Below are positions 3,231-64,000 of a stretch of 64,000 nt of DNA, piece after piece. Below the pieces are notes generated by a model. The model did not search any database. It was not told the origin of the DNA and saw only the letters and a program-made list of their open reading frames with translations. The first letter of the stretch is position 1, and each line of letters starts with the position of its first letter. The stretch is from contig NZ_NGKU01000001.1 in NCBI RefSeq assembly GCF_002140915.1, positions 1,681,539 to 1,745,538 of the forward strand. Direction: 5' to 3'. Source of the stretch: Candidatus Enterococcus testudinis (GTDB lineage: Bacteria; Bacillota; Bacilli; Lactobacillales; Enterococcaceae). The position numbers were made by a program, and so were the translations under genes.

Positions 3231-3279
3231 TGATAGTTCCTCCTAATTTAGGTTTTTTTTACCTTTATTACTGATTTTC

Positions 3280-3324: not shown

Positions 3325-3570
3325 TCACGCATCTCTGCCGTGGAGACCTTTTTGCCTTTGGATTTCTTTCAATTTGTCTGGTGTGACATCGGTGCCTTCT
3401 GGATCAACGATTTTCATACCTTCGATATGATGACGCATACCGCCGCGAAATGCTGTTAAATATTCTTCTCGCAACGCTTTTTGTTCTTTTTCTTCCACAT
3501 CAGTCAGACCTTCGCTTTTTTTCTTTTTCGCTAGTTCATTGATGCGTGCTAATTTCTCTGGTGATAACAT
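3325..3570 (-). CDS. DUF896 (YnzC/UPF0291) small protein
   Basis: An 81-residue cytosolic protein starting [16 protein letters not shown], the signature of the DUF896 family of Firmicutes. The frame is open for 24 codons further upstream, but AAAGGAGTG lies at the right distance from ATG 3570, so the shorter start is chosen. Helical N-terminal half, charged, with a C-terminal GRDA tail. In Bacillus, relatives (YnzC, YneJ) lie near lexA/yneA, and here too the gene is divergent from lexA. Molecular role is unknown. Confidence 0.88.
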
Positions 3571-59539: not shown

Positions 59540-59716
59540 GTTGTACCTCCTGCAGTGCAAACTCTCGTCAGACACCAATTATATATAAACGGGGCATCCC
59601 TTCGATTTTGACACTATTTGTATAAAATCACACTATACCCATTATCCTATCCTTTAGCTGTCTATCTGTCAACGTTTTCAAAGTGTTGACAGGTGATAGA
59701 CAGTCCATAGCCCTTT

Positions 59717-60634
59717 TTATTGCAAATCTTGCTGGAGCCTTTCTTTCGTCAGATTCAGTTCCTCCAATGAAACTTCTTGGTAAGAAATGCCTGCTTCCCC
59801 TTTAAATCCATCCCCTGTAAATCCTTCGCCGACCATTTGGAAAAGTTCAATCTCAGACAACGCATTTTGATACTGGGTAAATAAACGTGTCATTTGATTT
59901 AAGGTTAGATCGGTTTCACCGTTATCCCCGATGATGCTCAGAAATTCAGGAATCTGGGCAACGCCAGAAAAAGAAATCATATGTTCCGCAATGATTTGGG
60001 TGACTTCCCGCTGTCTTCTTTGTCTGCCATAGTCCCCTTCCGGATCATCTTTGCGCATGCGGGTATACTGCAATGCTTCCCATCCATTTAAATACAACGT
60101 TCCTTCTGGATAGTCAATATTCTCCGCAGTGAAGGCGAACTGGTTATCGACAGTGACACCGCCAATGGCATCTACTAAATCGGCCAGACCATCCATATTG
60201 ATCGATAGATAATGATGAATCGGTATCTCTAAATACGACTCAATTGTATTGACCATCATCTCTGTTCCGCCAAAAGAATGGGCATGATTGATTTTGTCAT
60301 AGTAACCCATGCCAACGATTTCCACATAGGCATCCCTAGGTACACTTGTGATGGTCGTCCGCCCATTCTCTGGATGCACTGTGACAACCATGATTGAATT
60401 GGCACGATAGTCTGTTTTTCTTTTCGCGTCATTGGCAATGCCTAATAAGAGCAAACTCATTGGTTCCGAATTTTCGATGACTACAGCTTCTTCACGACCT
60501 TCGATGGGCTGATGCATATCCAATGCCGCCTTTTCCATTTGTCGATACACTTGTAGTCCATAAACAGTCCCGATGGCCACAAATATTGCCATAATAAGCA
60601 AGAAACCAACGATTATTTTTTTTAGCAAACTCAT
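59717..60634 (-). CDS. LytR-CpsA-Psr family ligase/regulator
   Basis: 305 residues from ATG 60634 (GGAGG site; 23 upstream codons rejected). One N-terminal membrane segment (about 5-28), then the extracellular LCP domain: MSLLLLGIANDAKR, SVPRDAYVEI, DKINHAHSFGG, MDGLADLVDAIGGVTVDN and YTRMRKDDPEGDYGRQRRQ, with the Arg and Asp residues that hold the polyprenyl-diphosphate. LCP enzymes attach teichoic acid or capsule to peptidoglycan. Last gene of the SEDS operon, 4 bp after the PAP2 gene. Confidence 0.93.
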   Translation of the reverse strand: MSLLKKIIVGFLLIMAIFVAIGTVYGLQVYRQMEKAALDMHQPIEGREEAVVIENSEPMSLLLLGIANDAKRKTDYRANSIMVVTVHPENGRTTITSVPRDAYVEIVGMGYYDKINHAHSFGGTEMMVNTIESYLEIPIHHYLSINMDGLADLVDAIGGVTVDNQFAFTAENIDYPEGTLYLNGWEALQYTRMRKDDPEGDYGRQRRQREVTQIIAEHMISFSGVAQIPEFLSIIGDNGETDLTLNQMTRLFTQYQNALSEIELFQMVGEGFTGDGFKGEAGISYQEVSLEELNLTKERLQQDLQ

Positions 60635-60638
60635 TTTC

Positions 60639-61289
60639 TTACCTCCTCGTGCCTTTTTGACTGATCCACACATACCCTTCATACGTGAGCAAACTAACCG
60701 CATTGGCTAATAGCAAACTTGCAATCATATCACTGAGGTAATGGACACCTAGATAGATGCGAGATGTCATGATCAAAAGAATATAGACGACCCCGATCAT
60801 AAGGAAAATGGCTTCAAAACAATGATTGATCGGTGTTGGTCTATTCCATTCAACAGTGGTTACAACAAGGATGATCGTTGTGACCAGTGTTGCTGCTAAC
60901 AGCACATGTCCACTGGGAAAGCTGAAAGATGTACGGAGATCACTGCCCGTGACTTGCGGTCGCGGCCGAGCAACCACATCCTTTACCACTTTTCCTAGAC
61001 CGCTGATCAACACATGGTTGCCCATCACCCATAACGAGAGAAAATAACAACGACGGATGATTAACCAACAGCTTACTACTAGGAAACTGCCGCTAATGGG
61101 TATAATCGTCGCTGTCATTGCCAAATAATGGAAGAACGTGTCCAAAGACGCGGTTCTGTGTTCAGGCACATGCAAGAAGAACTGATCGATCCATAACAAT
61201 CTTTCAGGATCGGACCAGATAGACAGCATGAAGATCATAAATCCTATGCCGAATATCGATCCGACCCATAAACTATTCTTTTTTATCAT
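60639..61289 (-). CDS. PAP2-family membrane phosphatase
   Basis: 216 residues, six membrane segments. Phosphatase motifs KVVKDVVARPRP (C1), SFPSGH (C2) and SRIYLGVHYLSD (C3) are complete. Members dephosphorylate undecaprenyl diphosphate (BcrC type) or phosphatidylglycerol phosphate. Given the SEDS and LCP neighbours, recycling of the lipid carrier is the best inference. Starts 3 bp after the second SEDS gene. Confidence 0.92.
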   Translation of the reverse strand: MIKKNSLWVGSIFGIGFMIFMLSIWSDPERLLWIDQFFLHVPEHRTASLDTFFHYLAMTATIIPISGSFLVVSCWLIIRRCYFLSLWVMGNHVLISGLGKVVKDVVARPRPQVTGSDLRTSFSFPSGHVLLAATLVTTIILVVTTVEWNRPTPINHCFEAIFLMIGVVYILLIMTSRIYLGVHYLSDMIASLLLANAVSLLTYEGYVWISQKGTRR

Positions 61290-61292
61290 TTT

Positions 61293-62474
61293 TTATCTCA
61301 CTCCTACTTGACTTCGGGCATCTACTGCAATCAATCGGTCCTGATTCAATCCCAAAATGATGCCCATAGCGATACTGATGGCAATCAGCGACGTCCCGCC
61401 TTGGCTAAGAAACGGCAATGGGATTCCAGTTAATGGCAGCAAACCGATCGCTGCGCCAATATTTTCAAAGATCTGAAACACCAATCCGAAGATAAAGGTG
61501 ATAGCAATATAAATCGATGCTTTGTTGTTTGTAGCCATTGCAGTAAAAATCACCTGATAAATCAAATAAAAATAGAGAAAGATCACCAACGTGCTCCCAA
61601 AGAAACCAAACGTTTCCCCAATCACCGTAAAGACCATATCTGATTCCCTTACTGGAACATAAACTGTCACATGATTTTGCGAAGCCCCGAATAGTCCGCC
61701 AGAACCAATAGCCAAGATACTTCTGACTTGTTGAAAGGCAATCGAATCCTGATAAGCAAACGGATCAACCCAAGCTTTCACACGATCCAGCTGATATTGT
61801 GAAAAGGTCAGTTGGAAGAGGATCCGATTGCCCCACTCGGTAAATACCAGCAGCAGCAATATTCCCCCCACAAGCGCAGTCAAAGAAGCAATGACTGTCA
61901 AGATTTTCCAATCGACGCCTGAAATGATAAATAAAGCACCCAACATGACGACAAATACCAAAGTCGTCCCGAGGTCTCTTTGGACATACATCAGGAAAAA
62001 TGTTGGAAAGCTATATAGCAATATTTTACCGACATACCTTATATCCGATCGAATTGTACGGGGACCTTTGCGCTTTTCGTATATCAGTGTGAGATAGACC
62101 ATAAATAAAACAAAGGCGATCTTCATAAATTCTGAAGGTTGGATCGTAAAGCTGCCGATTCTCAGCCAGCGTTTTGTATGTGTTTCGTGAAACATGAATG
62201 GATCATAAAACCAATGTAAGGAGGCCATCAGCCCTAAAGAAAGCAGATACCACAATCCTGAAAAACGCAGTAAGAAGGACGTCTTCAGCAAGCTCGCTGC
62301 AATCAACGCCAAGATAGACAATAGACAAAAAAGAATCTGACGAATCATAACAGTTCGTGCATCACGACCATCCATCACCGCAGCCTGATACTGAATCCAA
62401 ATACTCAAAAGATATAATAAAAAAAGCGGCAATAATAATGCATAGTTGACCTCACGCTGTTTGTAAAACCGCAT
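61293..62474 (-). CDS. SEDS-family glycosyltransferase, RodA-like
   Basis: 393 residues with about ten membrane segments. ATG 62474 is preferred to the GTG three codons earlier, which touches the ribosome site. Contains RESDMVFTVIGETFG with the catalytic Asp and GLLPLTGIPLPFLSQGG, so it looks like a functional peptidoglycan polymerase. SEDS proteins normally pair with a class B PBP, absent here. It overlaps the previous SEDS gene by 23 bp. Confidence 0.92.
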   Translation of the reverse strand: MRFYKQREVNYALLLPLFLLYLLSIWIQYQAAVMDGRDARTVMIRQILFCLLSILALIAASLLKTSFLLRFSGLWYLLSLGLMASLHWFYDPFMFHETHTKRWLRIGSFTIQPSEFMKIAFVLFMVYLTLIYEKRKGPRTIRSDIRYVGKILLYSFPTFFLMYVQRDLGTTLVFVVMLGALFIISGVDWKILTVIASLTALVGGILLLLVFTEWGNRILFQLTFSQYQLDRVKAWVDPFAYQDSIAFQQVRSILAIGSGGLFGASQNHVTVYVPVRESDMVFTVIGETFGFFGSTLVIFLYFYLIYQVIFTAMATNNKASIYIAITFIFGLVFQIFENIGAAIGLLPLTGIPLPFLSQGGTSLIAISIAMGIILGLNQDRLIAVDARSQVGVR

Positions 62475-63603
62475 ATTGATCACCTTCCTCTCGTGCCAGT
62501 TTTATACACATCCCAAATGCAAATGATAAGATAAAGTAGCTTGAACCACCGTAACTAATAAATGGCAAAGGGACCCCAGTCATTGGCATCAAACCTAGGA
62601 TACTGGCGATATTGATACTGGTTTGCATTAAAATAAGTGTTGCGGTCCCTAGTAAAATCAAACCGATCTGATCATTTTTGCACGTTGCGCTATATTTAAA
62701 CAAACGAACAATGATCAAAAACAACAAGCCAATCACAAAGACCCCAAACAGCAAGCCTAACTCTTCAACCATGACCGAAAAAATAAAATCTGTTTCAGCA
62801 ACCGGCAAAAAGCCTTTTTTCGTGATACTGTTGCCTAAGCCTAATCCACTTAGGCCGCCATTAAACAACGCATAATAGGAATGAATCATCTGAAACCCCT
62901 GTCCATACGGATCAGAAAAAGGATCCCCCACCAATCGAATACGATTATAGACATGTTCAAACATCGATGGCAGCAAATCATGTTGTCCCAGCAACAAAAT
63001 AAGGCCACCAGTCATCACAAGCACAAACAGCAGAATAACAAAGAGCAATGCTGTCAATTTCACCGGGACTTGAACTGTCGTAATCATGATAAACGCTAAA
63101 AACAGTAGGATAAACACACCTGCAACTTTCGGTTGAAACAAGATCAGCAAGCAGCAAACCAGCAACAAGCCGAGAGGTTTCTTGATTTCTTGAAAAGATG
63201 ATTTGGGTTCCTTGAAGACATGGGCCAAATATAAAATCATGCCCACGTTCACCATCTCAGAAGGTTGAAATTGCAGACCCGCGATCGACACCCATCGTTG
63301 CGCCCCGTTCACAGTCACACCAAAAAAAGGAATATGGGCAAGCAACAGAGTCACTACACCAAAACCAATCAAGCCAATCGCCAATGGTCGTCCCAACAAG
63401 ATACTGCTGCGCACCTTTTGCAGCAACAATATCAATGTCCAACTCATGAAGGAAAATATCAATTGTCGTTTGAACAAAGCCGAAGGGGCTGCACCAATCG
63501 TCAGCAGACGAAATGAACTGGCACTATAGATCATAAGCAGACCGATGACACTTAAACATATATAAGCTATGACCAATACCCAGTCTGTCTTTTTGCGTTT
63601 CAT
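62452..63603 (-). CDS. SEDS-family glycosyltransferase, FtsW/RodA type
   Basis: 383 residues with about ten membrane segments. VAETDFIFSVMVEELG has the catalytic Asp, GLMPMTGVPLPFISYGGSS is the conserved C-terminal loop, and GAQRWVSI is present in the first half. Paralogue of the next gene. AGGAGTG precedes ATG 63603. First gene after the M-box leader, which is unusual for this family. Confidence 0.93.
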   Translation of the reverse strand: MKRKKTDWVLVIAYICLSVIGLLMIYSASSFRLLTIGAAPSALFKRQLIFSFMSWTLILLLQKVRSSILLGRPLAIGLIGFGVVTLLLAHIPFFGVTVNGAQRWVSIAGLQFQPSEMVNVGMILYLAHVFKEPKSSFQEIKKPLGLLLVCCLLILFQPKVAGVFILLFLAFIMITTVQVPVKLTALLFVILLFVLVMTGGLILLLGQHDLLPSMFEHVYNRIRLVGDPFSDPYGQGFQMIHSYYALFNGGLSGLGLGNSITKKGFLPVAETDFIFSVMVEELGLLFGVFVIGLLFLIIVRLFKYSATCKNDQIGLILLGTATLILMQTSINIASILGLMPMTGVPLPFISYGGSSYFILSFAFGMCIKLAREEGDQYAVLQTA

Positions 63604-63677
63604 TTATTTCACTCCTATTTCCTTGGTATCGGTGTGCTAACGGTCATTCGCTTTTGCGATCCATCGCTGATCCTAAG

Positions 63678-63714
63678 AAAAAAAGTCTAACTTCCCTTAG
63701 GACGTTAGACTTTT
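63678..63714 (-). terminator. M-box expression-platform terminator
   Basis: On the minus strand AAAGTCTAAC / GTTAGACTTT followed by TTTTTTC, about 80 bp before the SEDS start. It sits directly after the aptamer, as expected for a transcription-attenuating M-box; TTCTTAGGA downstream could pair with TCCTAAG of the loop. Confidence 0.85.
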
Positions 63715-63720
63715 CGCAAT

Positions 63721-63881
63721 CTCATCGTCCGAGTTTTAGCACTATACAACGTAAAGCAATTCGTTCTTGCTTAGCTATTTTATGAAAAGCCTTAATCCGA
63801 CAATTCCTGTTTTACACATTGGCGTCTTTCGACGTTTCTGCGCAATAGCCTATGTTTGTATAGGAGCCTCACCTAACAAGG
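63721..63881 (-). promoter_or_regulatory. M-box (ykoK-type) magnesium riboswitch
   Basis: The gene-free stretch 63604-64000 holds this leader. On the minus strand it contains the family's conserved blocks in order: GTTAGGTGAGGCTCCTAT, CATAGGCTATTGCGCAGAAA, CGTCGAAAGACGCCAATG, ACAGGAATTG and TATAGTGCTAAAACTC. In Bacillus, M-box RNAs bind Mg2+ and stop transcription when magnesium is ample. A TTGTCA-N17-TAACAT promoter candidate lies upstream (minus strand, about 63930-63900). Downstream are SEDS genes, not a transporter. Confidence 0.93.
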
Positions 63882-64000
63882 TTTATTGTTATTTTATATC
63901 CAGTACGATGTTACCGCTCTTCGCTTGCTTTGACAACACCATCTAAATAATATTAAATATTCTTTACTATTTCTTAATTATATCTACCATTTTGAAGATA

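What the first reader, a model, noticed from the sequence alone, without database searches (positions are those of the whole stretch)
59717..63881. M-box magnesium riboswitch in front of a SEDS-SEDS-PAP2-LCP envelope operon
A well-conserved M-box plus terminator hairpin lies on the same strand and directly upstream of two SEDS polymerases, a PAP2 phosphatase and an LCP ligase. M-boxes are established regulators of Mg2+ transporters (mgtE, corA, mgtA types). No transporter is present here. The operon should be read through when Mg2+ is low. Since teichoic acids bind Mg2+ and LCP enzymes attach them, this suggests a magnesium-dependent wall remodelling programme. The regulon extension is inferred.
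Basis: partly seen in the sequence, partly recalled or inferred. Interest (0 to 1): 0.87.

Follow-up and report, generated by a model that had tools for sequence, protein, structure and literature searches.

The report
Magnesium riboswitch on wall-polymerase operon
Enterococci carry a predicted magnesium-sensing RNA switch in front of spare cell-wall-building genes, including, in Enterococcus faecium, the operon of the ampicillin-resistance protein PBP5, which suggests that wall synthesis is tied to magnesium supply.

Summary
Observation confirmed: an RF00380 M-box (157.1 bits, gathering score 44) at 63714-63887 (-), then an intrinsic terminator, an FtsW-type SEDS, a RodA-type SEDS, a PAP2 phosphatase and an LCP ligase, with no transporter. 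It is not a one-off. Of 105 Enterococcaceae genomes, 55 have three or more SEDS genes; in 52 of these an M-box heads the extra-SEDS operon, with no recognisable transporter between. Separate PAP2-LCP, lone LCP and RodA-PAP2 units have M-boxes of their own. A palindrome and promoter published in 2026 for that operon fall inside the M-box terminator region. Best reading: low Mg2+ relieves termination and switches on a second wall-polymerase set. Mg2+ response was not measured; the antiterminator pairing I tested was not significant; a Listeria cousin operon's promoter fusion did not respond to MgSO4 or EDTA. Known sensor, new and coherent regulon.

The parts
63908..63936 (-). promoter-like TTGTCA-N17-TAACAT just before the aptamer (weak, 9 of 12)
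   Evidence: such matches were no more frequent than in shuffles
63714..63887 (-). M-box (ykoK leader) Mg2+ riboswitch aptamer, RF00380
   Evidence: 157.1 bits, E 4.9e-36, full length
63678..63715 (-). intrinsic terminator hairpin and U-tract (expression platform)
62452..63603 (-). SEDS1: FtsW-type SEDS polymerase paralogue (383 aa), ortholog of ftsW of the ftsW-psr-pbp5 operon; conserved Asp272
61293..62483 (-). SEDS2: RodA-type SEDS polymerase paralogue (396 aa); conserved Asp282
60639..61289 (-). PAP2 phosphatase (216 aa), three motifs intact; probable undecaprenyl-pyrophosphate phosphatase (inferred)
59717..60634 (-). LCP (LytR-CpsA-Psr) ligase (305 aa)

Best explanation
The leader is a genuine M-box riboswitch with a transcription-terminating platform. 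When cytosolic Mg2+ is adequate the aptamer is compact and RNA polymerase stops at the hairpin at 63715-63678. When Mg2+ falls, the leader is read through and a second wall-assembly set is made: an FtsW-type and a RodA-type SEDS polymerase, a PAP2 lipid-carrier phosphatase and an LCP ligase. The set is a backup or Mg2+-sparing wall machine, part of a wider enterococcal M-box regulon that also contains P-type cation ATPases (MgtA-like), MgtC, MgtE, further LCP and PAP2-LCP genes and, in the E. faecium group, ftsW-psr-pbp5. Shown here: aptamer, terminator, operon, conservation, the other M-box genes. Inferred: the Mg2+ response, its direction, and the physiological purpose.
For: RF00380 157.1 bits. 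M-boxes of 143.7-162.8 bits before 52 of 55 extra-SEDS operons in the family; those operons hold the SEDS pair in 45 of 52 and an LCP gene in 46 of 52. Hairpin with T-run in 51 of 52 of those leaders against 38 of 260 mononucleotide shuffles. All 16 M-boxes of the window's genus in six genomes: 6 SEDS operons, 1 LCP, 1 LCP remnant, 6 MgtA-like, 2 MgtC-x-MgtA-like. Separate M-box units: RodA-PAP2 in G063; PAP2-LCP fusions in G012, G007, G044, G091, G040; LCP in G012, G003, G046. M-box before ftsW-psr-pbp5 in six genomes and in a named E. faecium plasmid. Conserved Asp and PAP2 motifs intact.
Against: No expression or binding data. A simple test for antiterminator pairing was not significant (mean shuffle fraction 0.50 over 47 of the 52 leaders; 5 lacked the search pattern). 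G061 keeps SEDS1 with no M-box, and G007's SEDS pair lies 2 kb from an M-box that faces an MgtA-like gene. A lacZ fusion of the Listeria lmo2689-ftsW2-rodA3 promoter did not change with MgSO4 or EDTA. Internal promoters and CroRS are described as other inputs to psr and pbp5.
Confidence: 0.77

Rival explanations
1. The M-box here is a passive relic: an ancestral M-box-ATPase-ftsW-rodA operon (as the Listeria gene order suggests) lost its transporter and the leader no longer has regulatory value.
For: Listeria has a Mg-type ATPase in front of ftsW2-rodA3; M-box units can decay (the own genome's M-box at G000:C1:1130008 heads only an 81-aa LCP remnant).
Against: Aptamer scores stay at 143.7-162.8 bits across five genera, in the range of transporter M-boxes of the same genomes (113.7-161.1 listed; 124.7 for the own MgtA-like gene). 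Hairpins are kept in 51 of 52 leaders. In G063 and G040 the separated parts each have an M-box.
Confidence: 0.08
2. Transcription is set mainly by envelope-stress regulators (CroRS in enterococci, CesRK in Listeria) at the promoter; the M-box is only a secondary gate, or reports the Mg2+ fall that accompanies envelope damage.
For: croS variants raise ftsW, psr and pbp5 transcripts in E. faecium; the Listeria operon is reported as CesR-controlled and beta-lactam induced, not moved by MgSO4 or EDTA.
Against: Does not explain why an M-box is kept in front of nearly every operon. The two can act in series. The promoter predicted in the E. faecium paper lies inside the M-box terminator region, so the true start site has probably not been examined there.
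Confidence: 0.3
3. Function is teichoic-acid or other secondary-polymer remodelling under low Mg2+, the SEDS genes being accessory.
For: LCP is in 46 of 52 operons; M-box-LCP and M-box-PAP2-LCP units occur without SEDS.
Against: A SEDS pair is in 45 of 52 operons, and in the E. faecium group a transpeptidase, PBP5, joins, which points to peptidoglycan. E. hirae lcpA (psr) is reported as not flanked by secondary-polymer gene clusters.
Confidence: 0.3

Closest known systems
B. subtilis mgtE (ykoK) M-box and other transporter M-boxes (RF00380)
   Same: Aptamer class, full-length match, terminator platform directly downstream
   Different: Here the genes are wall polymerases, a phosphatase and an LCP ligase. 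PMC4072509 (passages) says M-boxes are almost always upstream of corA, mgtA or mgtE, and adds an Nramp-related class
E. faecium / E. hirae ftsW-psr(lcpA)-pbp5 operon
   Same: SEDS1 is in one clade with this ftsW; an LCP gene is in the operon; an M-box leader was found for both
   Different: The window operon has a RodA-type SEDS2 and PAP2 and no pbp5; the own genome's best PBP5 match is at G000:C1:1855368, elsewhere
Listeria lmo2689-lmo2686 (Mg-type ATPase, ftsW2, rodA3, unknown)
   Same: A second FtsW and an extra RodA side by side in one operon, minimally expressed in BHI (PMC6686043, passages)
   Different: Begins with a Mg-type ATPase. An M-box there is my recollection only: the passages mention no riboswitch, and PMC12824596 (passages) places a Listeria ykoK leader before mgtA, which it names lmo0818
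M. tuberculosis pe20 M-box (PMC12810186, passages)
   Same: M-box outside the classical transporter genes, with mgtC in the operon
   Different: Translational platform with Rho; products proposed to form part of a Mg2+ transporter

Membership tests
M-box riboswitch (RF00380) | Score above the curated gathering cut-off over the full model | tested here: met
   157.1 against 44 bits, positions 1-169
M-box riboswitch (RF00380) | Expression platform (terminator) at the 3' end of the aptamer | tested here: met
   hairpin and T-run 63715-63678; 51 of 52 homologous leaders
M-box riboswitch (RF00380) | Alternative antiterminator pairing | tested here: inconclusive
   candidate GGACG/CGUCC here and a 7-bp duplex in ten leaders of the E. 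faecium hairpin type, but not above shuffles overall (47 of 52 leaders)
M-box riboswitch (RF00380) | Mg2+ binding and Mg2+-dependent expression | not testable with these tools
   needs in-line probing and transcript assays
M-box riboswitch (RF00380) | Usual target is a Mg2+ transporter (a habit of the class, not part of its definition) | tested here: not met
   target is SEDS-SEDS-PAP2-LCP
SEDS glycosyltransferases | PF01098 domain and the catalytic Asp (catalytic role recalled) | tested here: met
   Asp272 and Asp282 align with the Asp of RodA 6bar, which is Ala in 6bas as printed for SEDS1
ftsW-psr-pbp5 operon | FtsW-type gene of the pbp5-linked clade | tested here: met
   one clade with E. 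faecium ftsW, support 100/100, apart from the eight canonical FtsW rows
ftsW-psr-pbp5 operon | pbp5 downstream | tested here: not met
   GNAT, a 145-aa and an AI-2E-type gene follow LCP in the window; best PBP5 match elsewhere
PAP2 undecaprenyl-pyrophosphate phosphatase | three PAP2 motifs (patterns recalled) | tested here: met
   K-x6-RP, PSGH, SR-x5-H-x3-D
PAP2 undecaprenyl-pyrophosphate phosphatase | C55-PP phosphatase activity | not testable with these tools
   NCBIfam phosphatase models match only below their cut-offs

The most novel reading that the evidence does not exclude
Enterococci have a Mg2+-riboswitch regulon that brings in a second set of wall polymerases when Mg2+ is scarce, and in the E. 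faecium group the same switch gates ftsW-psr-pbp5, so that intrinsic beta-lactam resistance is partly set by cellular Mg2+. The palindromic motif and promoter published in 2026 for that operon are the riboswitch's own terminator region.
Probability: 0.5. Interest if true: 0.92.

Novelty: new variant of a known kind. Interest (0 to 1): 0.82.

Why it matters
The M-box papers seen here treat it almost only as a controller of Mg2+ transport. A conserved wall-synthesis branch gives a concrete, testable route from Mg2+ supply to peptidoglycan synthesis, a long-noted link with few known regulators (recalled). It could explain why extra FtsW/RodA pairs can be quiet in rich medium, as reported for Listeria. 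And it puts an ion-sensing RNA in front of the operon that makes E. faecium ampicillin-resistant, where the recent motif search that I saw did not look for one.

Tried and rejected
Antiterminator by duplex search: not significant over 47 of 52 SEDS-operon leaders, 5 dropped for lack of the search pattern, so no antiterminator is claimed. Two-state folding: the hairpin stays stable with or without the aptamer in static folding. First terminator scan often picked hairpins inside coding sequence; replaced by a 100-nt scan. First SEDS tree took a wrong ORF as a canonical row; rebuilt with BLAST-chosen canonical rows. The named-genome scan reached only the casseliflavus/gallinarum group, 5 loci. 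Order- and class-wide protein searches (395 and 398 genomes) gave related SEDS in other families; the few that I read (G037, G039, G214) had no M-box on the SEDS genes, the rest were not read. Listeria DNA was not obtained, so its M-box is unverified. Paper searches: M-box with FtsW/RodA gave 0; M-box with Enterococcus and peptidoglycan 0; 'magnesium riboswitch' with Enterococcus 1, not opened; M-box, ykoK, cell division 1, opened in passages; pbp5 with riboswitch and Enterococcus 4, of which 1 opened in passages; M-box with Listeria 7, 1 opened; M-box/ykoK/riboswitch 58, 40 listed, 5 opened in passages in all. None that I saw describes the link; most hits were seen as listings only, and only open PMC papers are held.
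Full report
Observation. The window carries one Rfam match at gathering threshold, the M-box RF00380 at 63714-63887 on the minus strand (157.1 bits, gathering score 44, E 4.9e-36, model 1-169). Its 3' end runs into a hairpin with a T-tract at 63715-63678, and the minimum-energy fold of the leader shows the aptamer's outer helix and this hairpin together. Downstream, 110 nt on, come four close-packed genes: SEDS1 (PF01098, 383 aa), SEDS2 (PF01098, 396 aa, 32-nt overlap), PAP2 (PF01569, 216 aa) and LCP (PF03816, 305 aa). SEDS1 scores best with the FtsW model and SEDS2 with RodA, each below the curated cut-off, as paralogues would. Asp272 and Asp282 align with the Asp of RodA 6bar; in 6bas that residue is Ala, as printed in the SEDS1 alignment; its catalytic role is recalled. 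PAP2 keeps the three motifs I recalled for the family.

Where it is. The window is G000:C1:1681539-1745538 of a 3.2-Mb genome. The nearest named relatives found are Enterococcus sp. RIT-PI-f (84% in SEDS1), E. casseliflavus (74%), E. innesii (74%), E. gallinarum (74%) and a MAG (73%); all five loci have the M-box. The own genome has four SEDS genes, this pair and two others, and three M-boxes: this one, one before an 863-aa P-type cation ATPase that I call MgtA-like (its Mg2+ specificity was not tested), and one followed only by an 81-aa remnant 76% like an intact M-box-headed LCP of G003.

How general. Of the 105 family genomes held, 101 have an M-box and 55 have three or more SEDS matches. 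I fetched extra-SEDS loci of 54 of these 55 (not G087, a fragmented genome whose third match was not inspected) and ran Rfam on them. In 52 an M-box of 143.7-162.8 bits stands in front of the SEDS operon; gene maps are, labels by BLAST against the window's proteins. The exceptions are G061 (SEDS1, no M-box), G007 (the pair has none; an M-box 2 kb further on faces an MgtA-like gene) and the uninspected G087. Layouts of the 52: M-box-SEDS1-SEDS2-PAP2-LCP in the six genomes of the window's genus (LCP absent in G003); M-box-SEDS1-SEDS2 and a 521-541-aa protein in 17 genomes of g10 and g16, which is a PAP2-LCP fusion in the two checked with Pfam (L082, L086); M-box-SEDS1-SEDS2-LCP in five (G044, G050, G052, G009, G086; LCP checked in G050); SEDS1 and LCP with or without SEDS2 behind an LCP-first order in g8, namely M-box-LCP-SEDS1-SEDS2 in 13 of its 17 genomes with extra SEDS, the other four (G097, G104, G093, G091) lacking a recognised LCP there; M-box-SEDS1-LCP-PBP5 in six g16 genomes; and G040 with two divergent M-boxes, one before SEDS1 and one before a PAP2-LCP fusion. 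In all, the SEDS pair is in 45 of 52 and an LCP in 46 of 52. Between M-box and SEDS no recognisable transporter was mapped; G091 has a 138-aa ORF there with no Pfam match.

Other M-boxes. I read the gene downstream of 44 further family M-boxes (chosen, not random, so the proportions are not a census): 25 MgtA-like ATPases (some after a small ORF; two checked with Pfam), 5 MgtC (1 checked), 1 MgtE, 4 PAP2-LCP fusions (all checked), 3 LCP without SEDS (all checked), 1 LCP-PBP5 (G065), 1 RodA-type SEDS2-PAP2 (G063), 1 LCP remnant and 3 others (two in G007 before an ABC transporter and an unknown protein, one in G063 with no clear ORF). For the window's genus the list is complete: 16 M-boxes in six genomes, of which 6 face the SEDS operon, 1 an LCP, 1 an LCP remnant, 6 MgtA-like and 2 MgtC-x-MgtA-like genes. 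In G063 the two halves, SEDS1-LCP-PBP5 and SEDS2-PAP2, lie apart and each has an M-box; in G040 SEDS1 and PAP2-LCP each have one. That is hard to explain as a relic. Other separate LCP and PAP2-LCP units (as in G012, G044, G046) are extra copies beside an operon LCP, not split-off pieces.

The pbp5 link. The 679-aa gene after LCP in G020 carries MecA_N, PBP_dimer and transpeptidase domains and matches E. faecium-type PBP5 over its whole length (6mkg, 1320 bits). The genes after LCP in the other five (G060, G062, G063, G064, G071) are 78-87% identical to it. This is the layout of the known ftsW-psr-pbp5 operon of E. hirae and E. faecium (PMC5059904, passages). In a named record, E. faecium Dallas 5 plasmid p5_70kb, ftsW-LCP-PBP5 has an M-box at L175:3051-3217, 138.9 bits. 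Its FtsW is almost identical to that of G062 (branch 0.003), whose operon lies on a 2.5-Mb contig, so a chromosomal copy has it too. PBP5 is M-box-headed in 9 of the 15 g16 genomes as far as the lists show (one search lists only the best 150 matches): six as ftsW-psr-pbp5, G065 as LCP-PBP5, and G066 and G069 by coordinates only. In the tree SEDS1 and the E. faecium ftsW form one clade (100/100) apart from the eight canonical FtsW rows, and SEDS2 forms one clade with the g8 SEDS2 apart from the eight canonical RodA rows (100/99); both clades also hold a few rows without an M-box (G007, G061, G037). Whether g8 SEDS1 shares that origin is not resolved.

A published reading that this changes. PMC13148053 (passages) reports the palindrome GAAAAGGT-N5-ACCTTTTC and a predicted promoter (TCGAAA and TATATT, 101 and 76 nt before the start codon) upstream of E. 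faecium ftsW; a search of its text for riboswitch and magnesium gave none. In the E. faecium record GGTCAGAATTCTTGTTCGAAAAGGTTTCTGACCTTTTC follows the M-box directly. The palindrome (3237-3257) covers the end of the hairpin loop, the 3' stem arm and the T-tract; TCGAAA (3235) lies in the loop and TATATT (3260) just after the T-tract; an ATG at 3337 fits the stated distances within one base. The exact motif was found behind the aptamer in four of the six unnamed ftsW-psr-pbp5 leaders (G063, G060, G020, G062); in the other two one letter differs. The same paper finds more PBP5 in nusG and rpoB variants with no rise of operon transcript, which does not support attenuation as their cause. PMC11077988 (passages) mentions neither magnesium nor riboswitch and describes promoters for psr and for pbp5 inside the operon, so M-box control of PBP5 could only be partial.

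Mechanism. Known M-boxes of this design terminate transcription at high Mg2+ (PMC4072509, passages). A hairpin with T-run of -8 kcal/mol or better lies within 100 nt of the aptamer in 51 of 52 SEDS-operon leaders, against 38 of 260 mononucleotide shuffles; the miss (G020) has the same stem with a T-tract my pattern did not accept. The antiterminator is unproved: a 7-bp duplex between the aptamer 3' strand and the hairpin loop occurs in ten leaders with the E. faecium-type hairpin, but over 47 leaders (5 more lacked the pattern) pairing is no better than shuffles. So: high Mg2+ off, low Mg2+ on, with the switch helix still to be found. Why wall genes? My inference: Mg2+ shortage weakens the standard route (GT51 polymerases and BacA/UppP phosphatase need divalent ions, PAP2 phosphatases do not; recalled), and the operon supplies a parallel SEDS route with its own carrier recycling and LCP. 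Teichoic-acid remodelling remains a rival for the LCP part.

Evidence against. The Listeria cousin operon lmo2689-ftsW2-rodA3-lmo2686 is minimally expressed in BHI and reported as CesR-controlled, and its promoter fusion did not respond to MgSO4 or EDTA (PMC6686043, passages). Whether that fusion held an M-box was not stated in the passages, and BHI is not Mg2+-limited by my understanding, but it is the nearest experiment that I saw and it is negative. Related SEDS genes in other families that I read (G037, G039, G214) have no M-box, so the link is so far enterococcal.

Verdict. Observation confirmed; interpretation partly supported and widened. A known sensor with a new, conserved wall-synthesis regulon.

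Noticed in passing
L140 (G007:C1:896800-904900): Two further M-boxes in one genome, one before an ABC permease plus ATPase pair and one 1.2 kb before a 939-aa protein with no Pfam hit: possible new Mg2+-related genes.
   Followed up: partly
L176 (E. hirae plasmid, NZ_CP093927.1): LCP-pbp5 lies between IS6/IS1216-type transposase genes, with no M-box in the 7 kb read, unlike the G065 copy on a 3.4-Mb contig.
   Followed up: partly
L178 (E. raffinosus, NZ_CP081847.1): An IS110-type transposase gene sits between SEDS1 and SEDS2 of the M-box operon; the next gene is annotated as a PAP2/LCP family protein.
   Followed up: no
L005:2009-2659 (own genome): An M-box with terminator heads only an LCP remnant; the relative G003 has an intact M-box-LCP unit.
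   Followed up: partly
window 59658-59703: A long inverted repeat (CTGTCTATC..GATAGACAG) follows the LCP gene; possible operon end.
   Followed up: no
L136, L142, L177: Recurrent M-box unit: MgtC (Pfam in L177), a middle gene (GNAT by Pfam in L136), then an MgtA-like ATPase; L177 is an E. faecalis record.
   Followed up: partly
L087:747-822: Group II intron match upstream of the M-box operon in G041.
   Followed up: no
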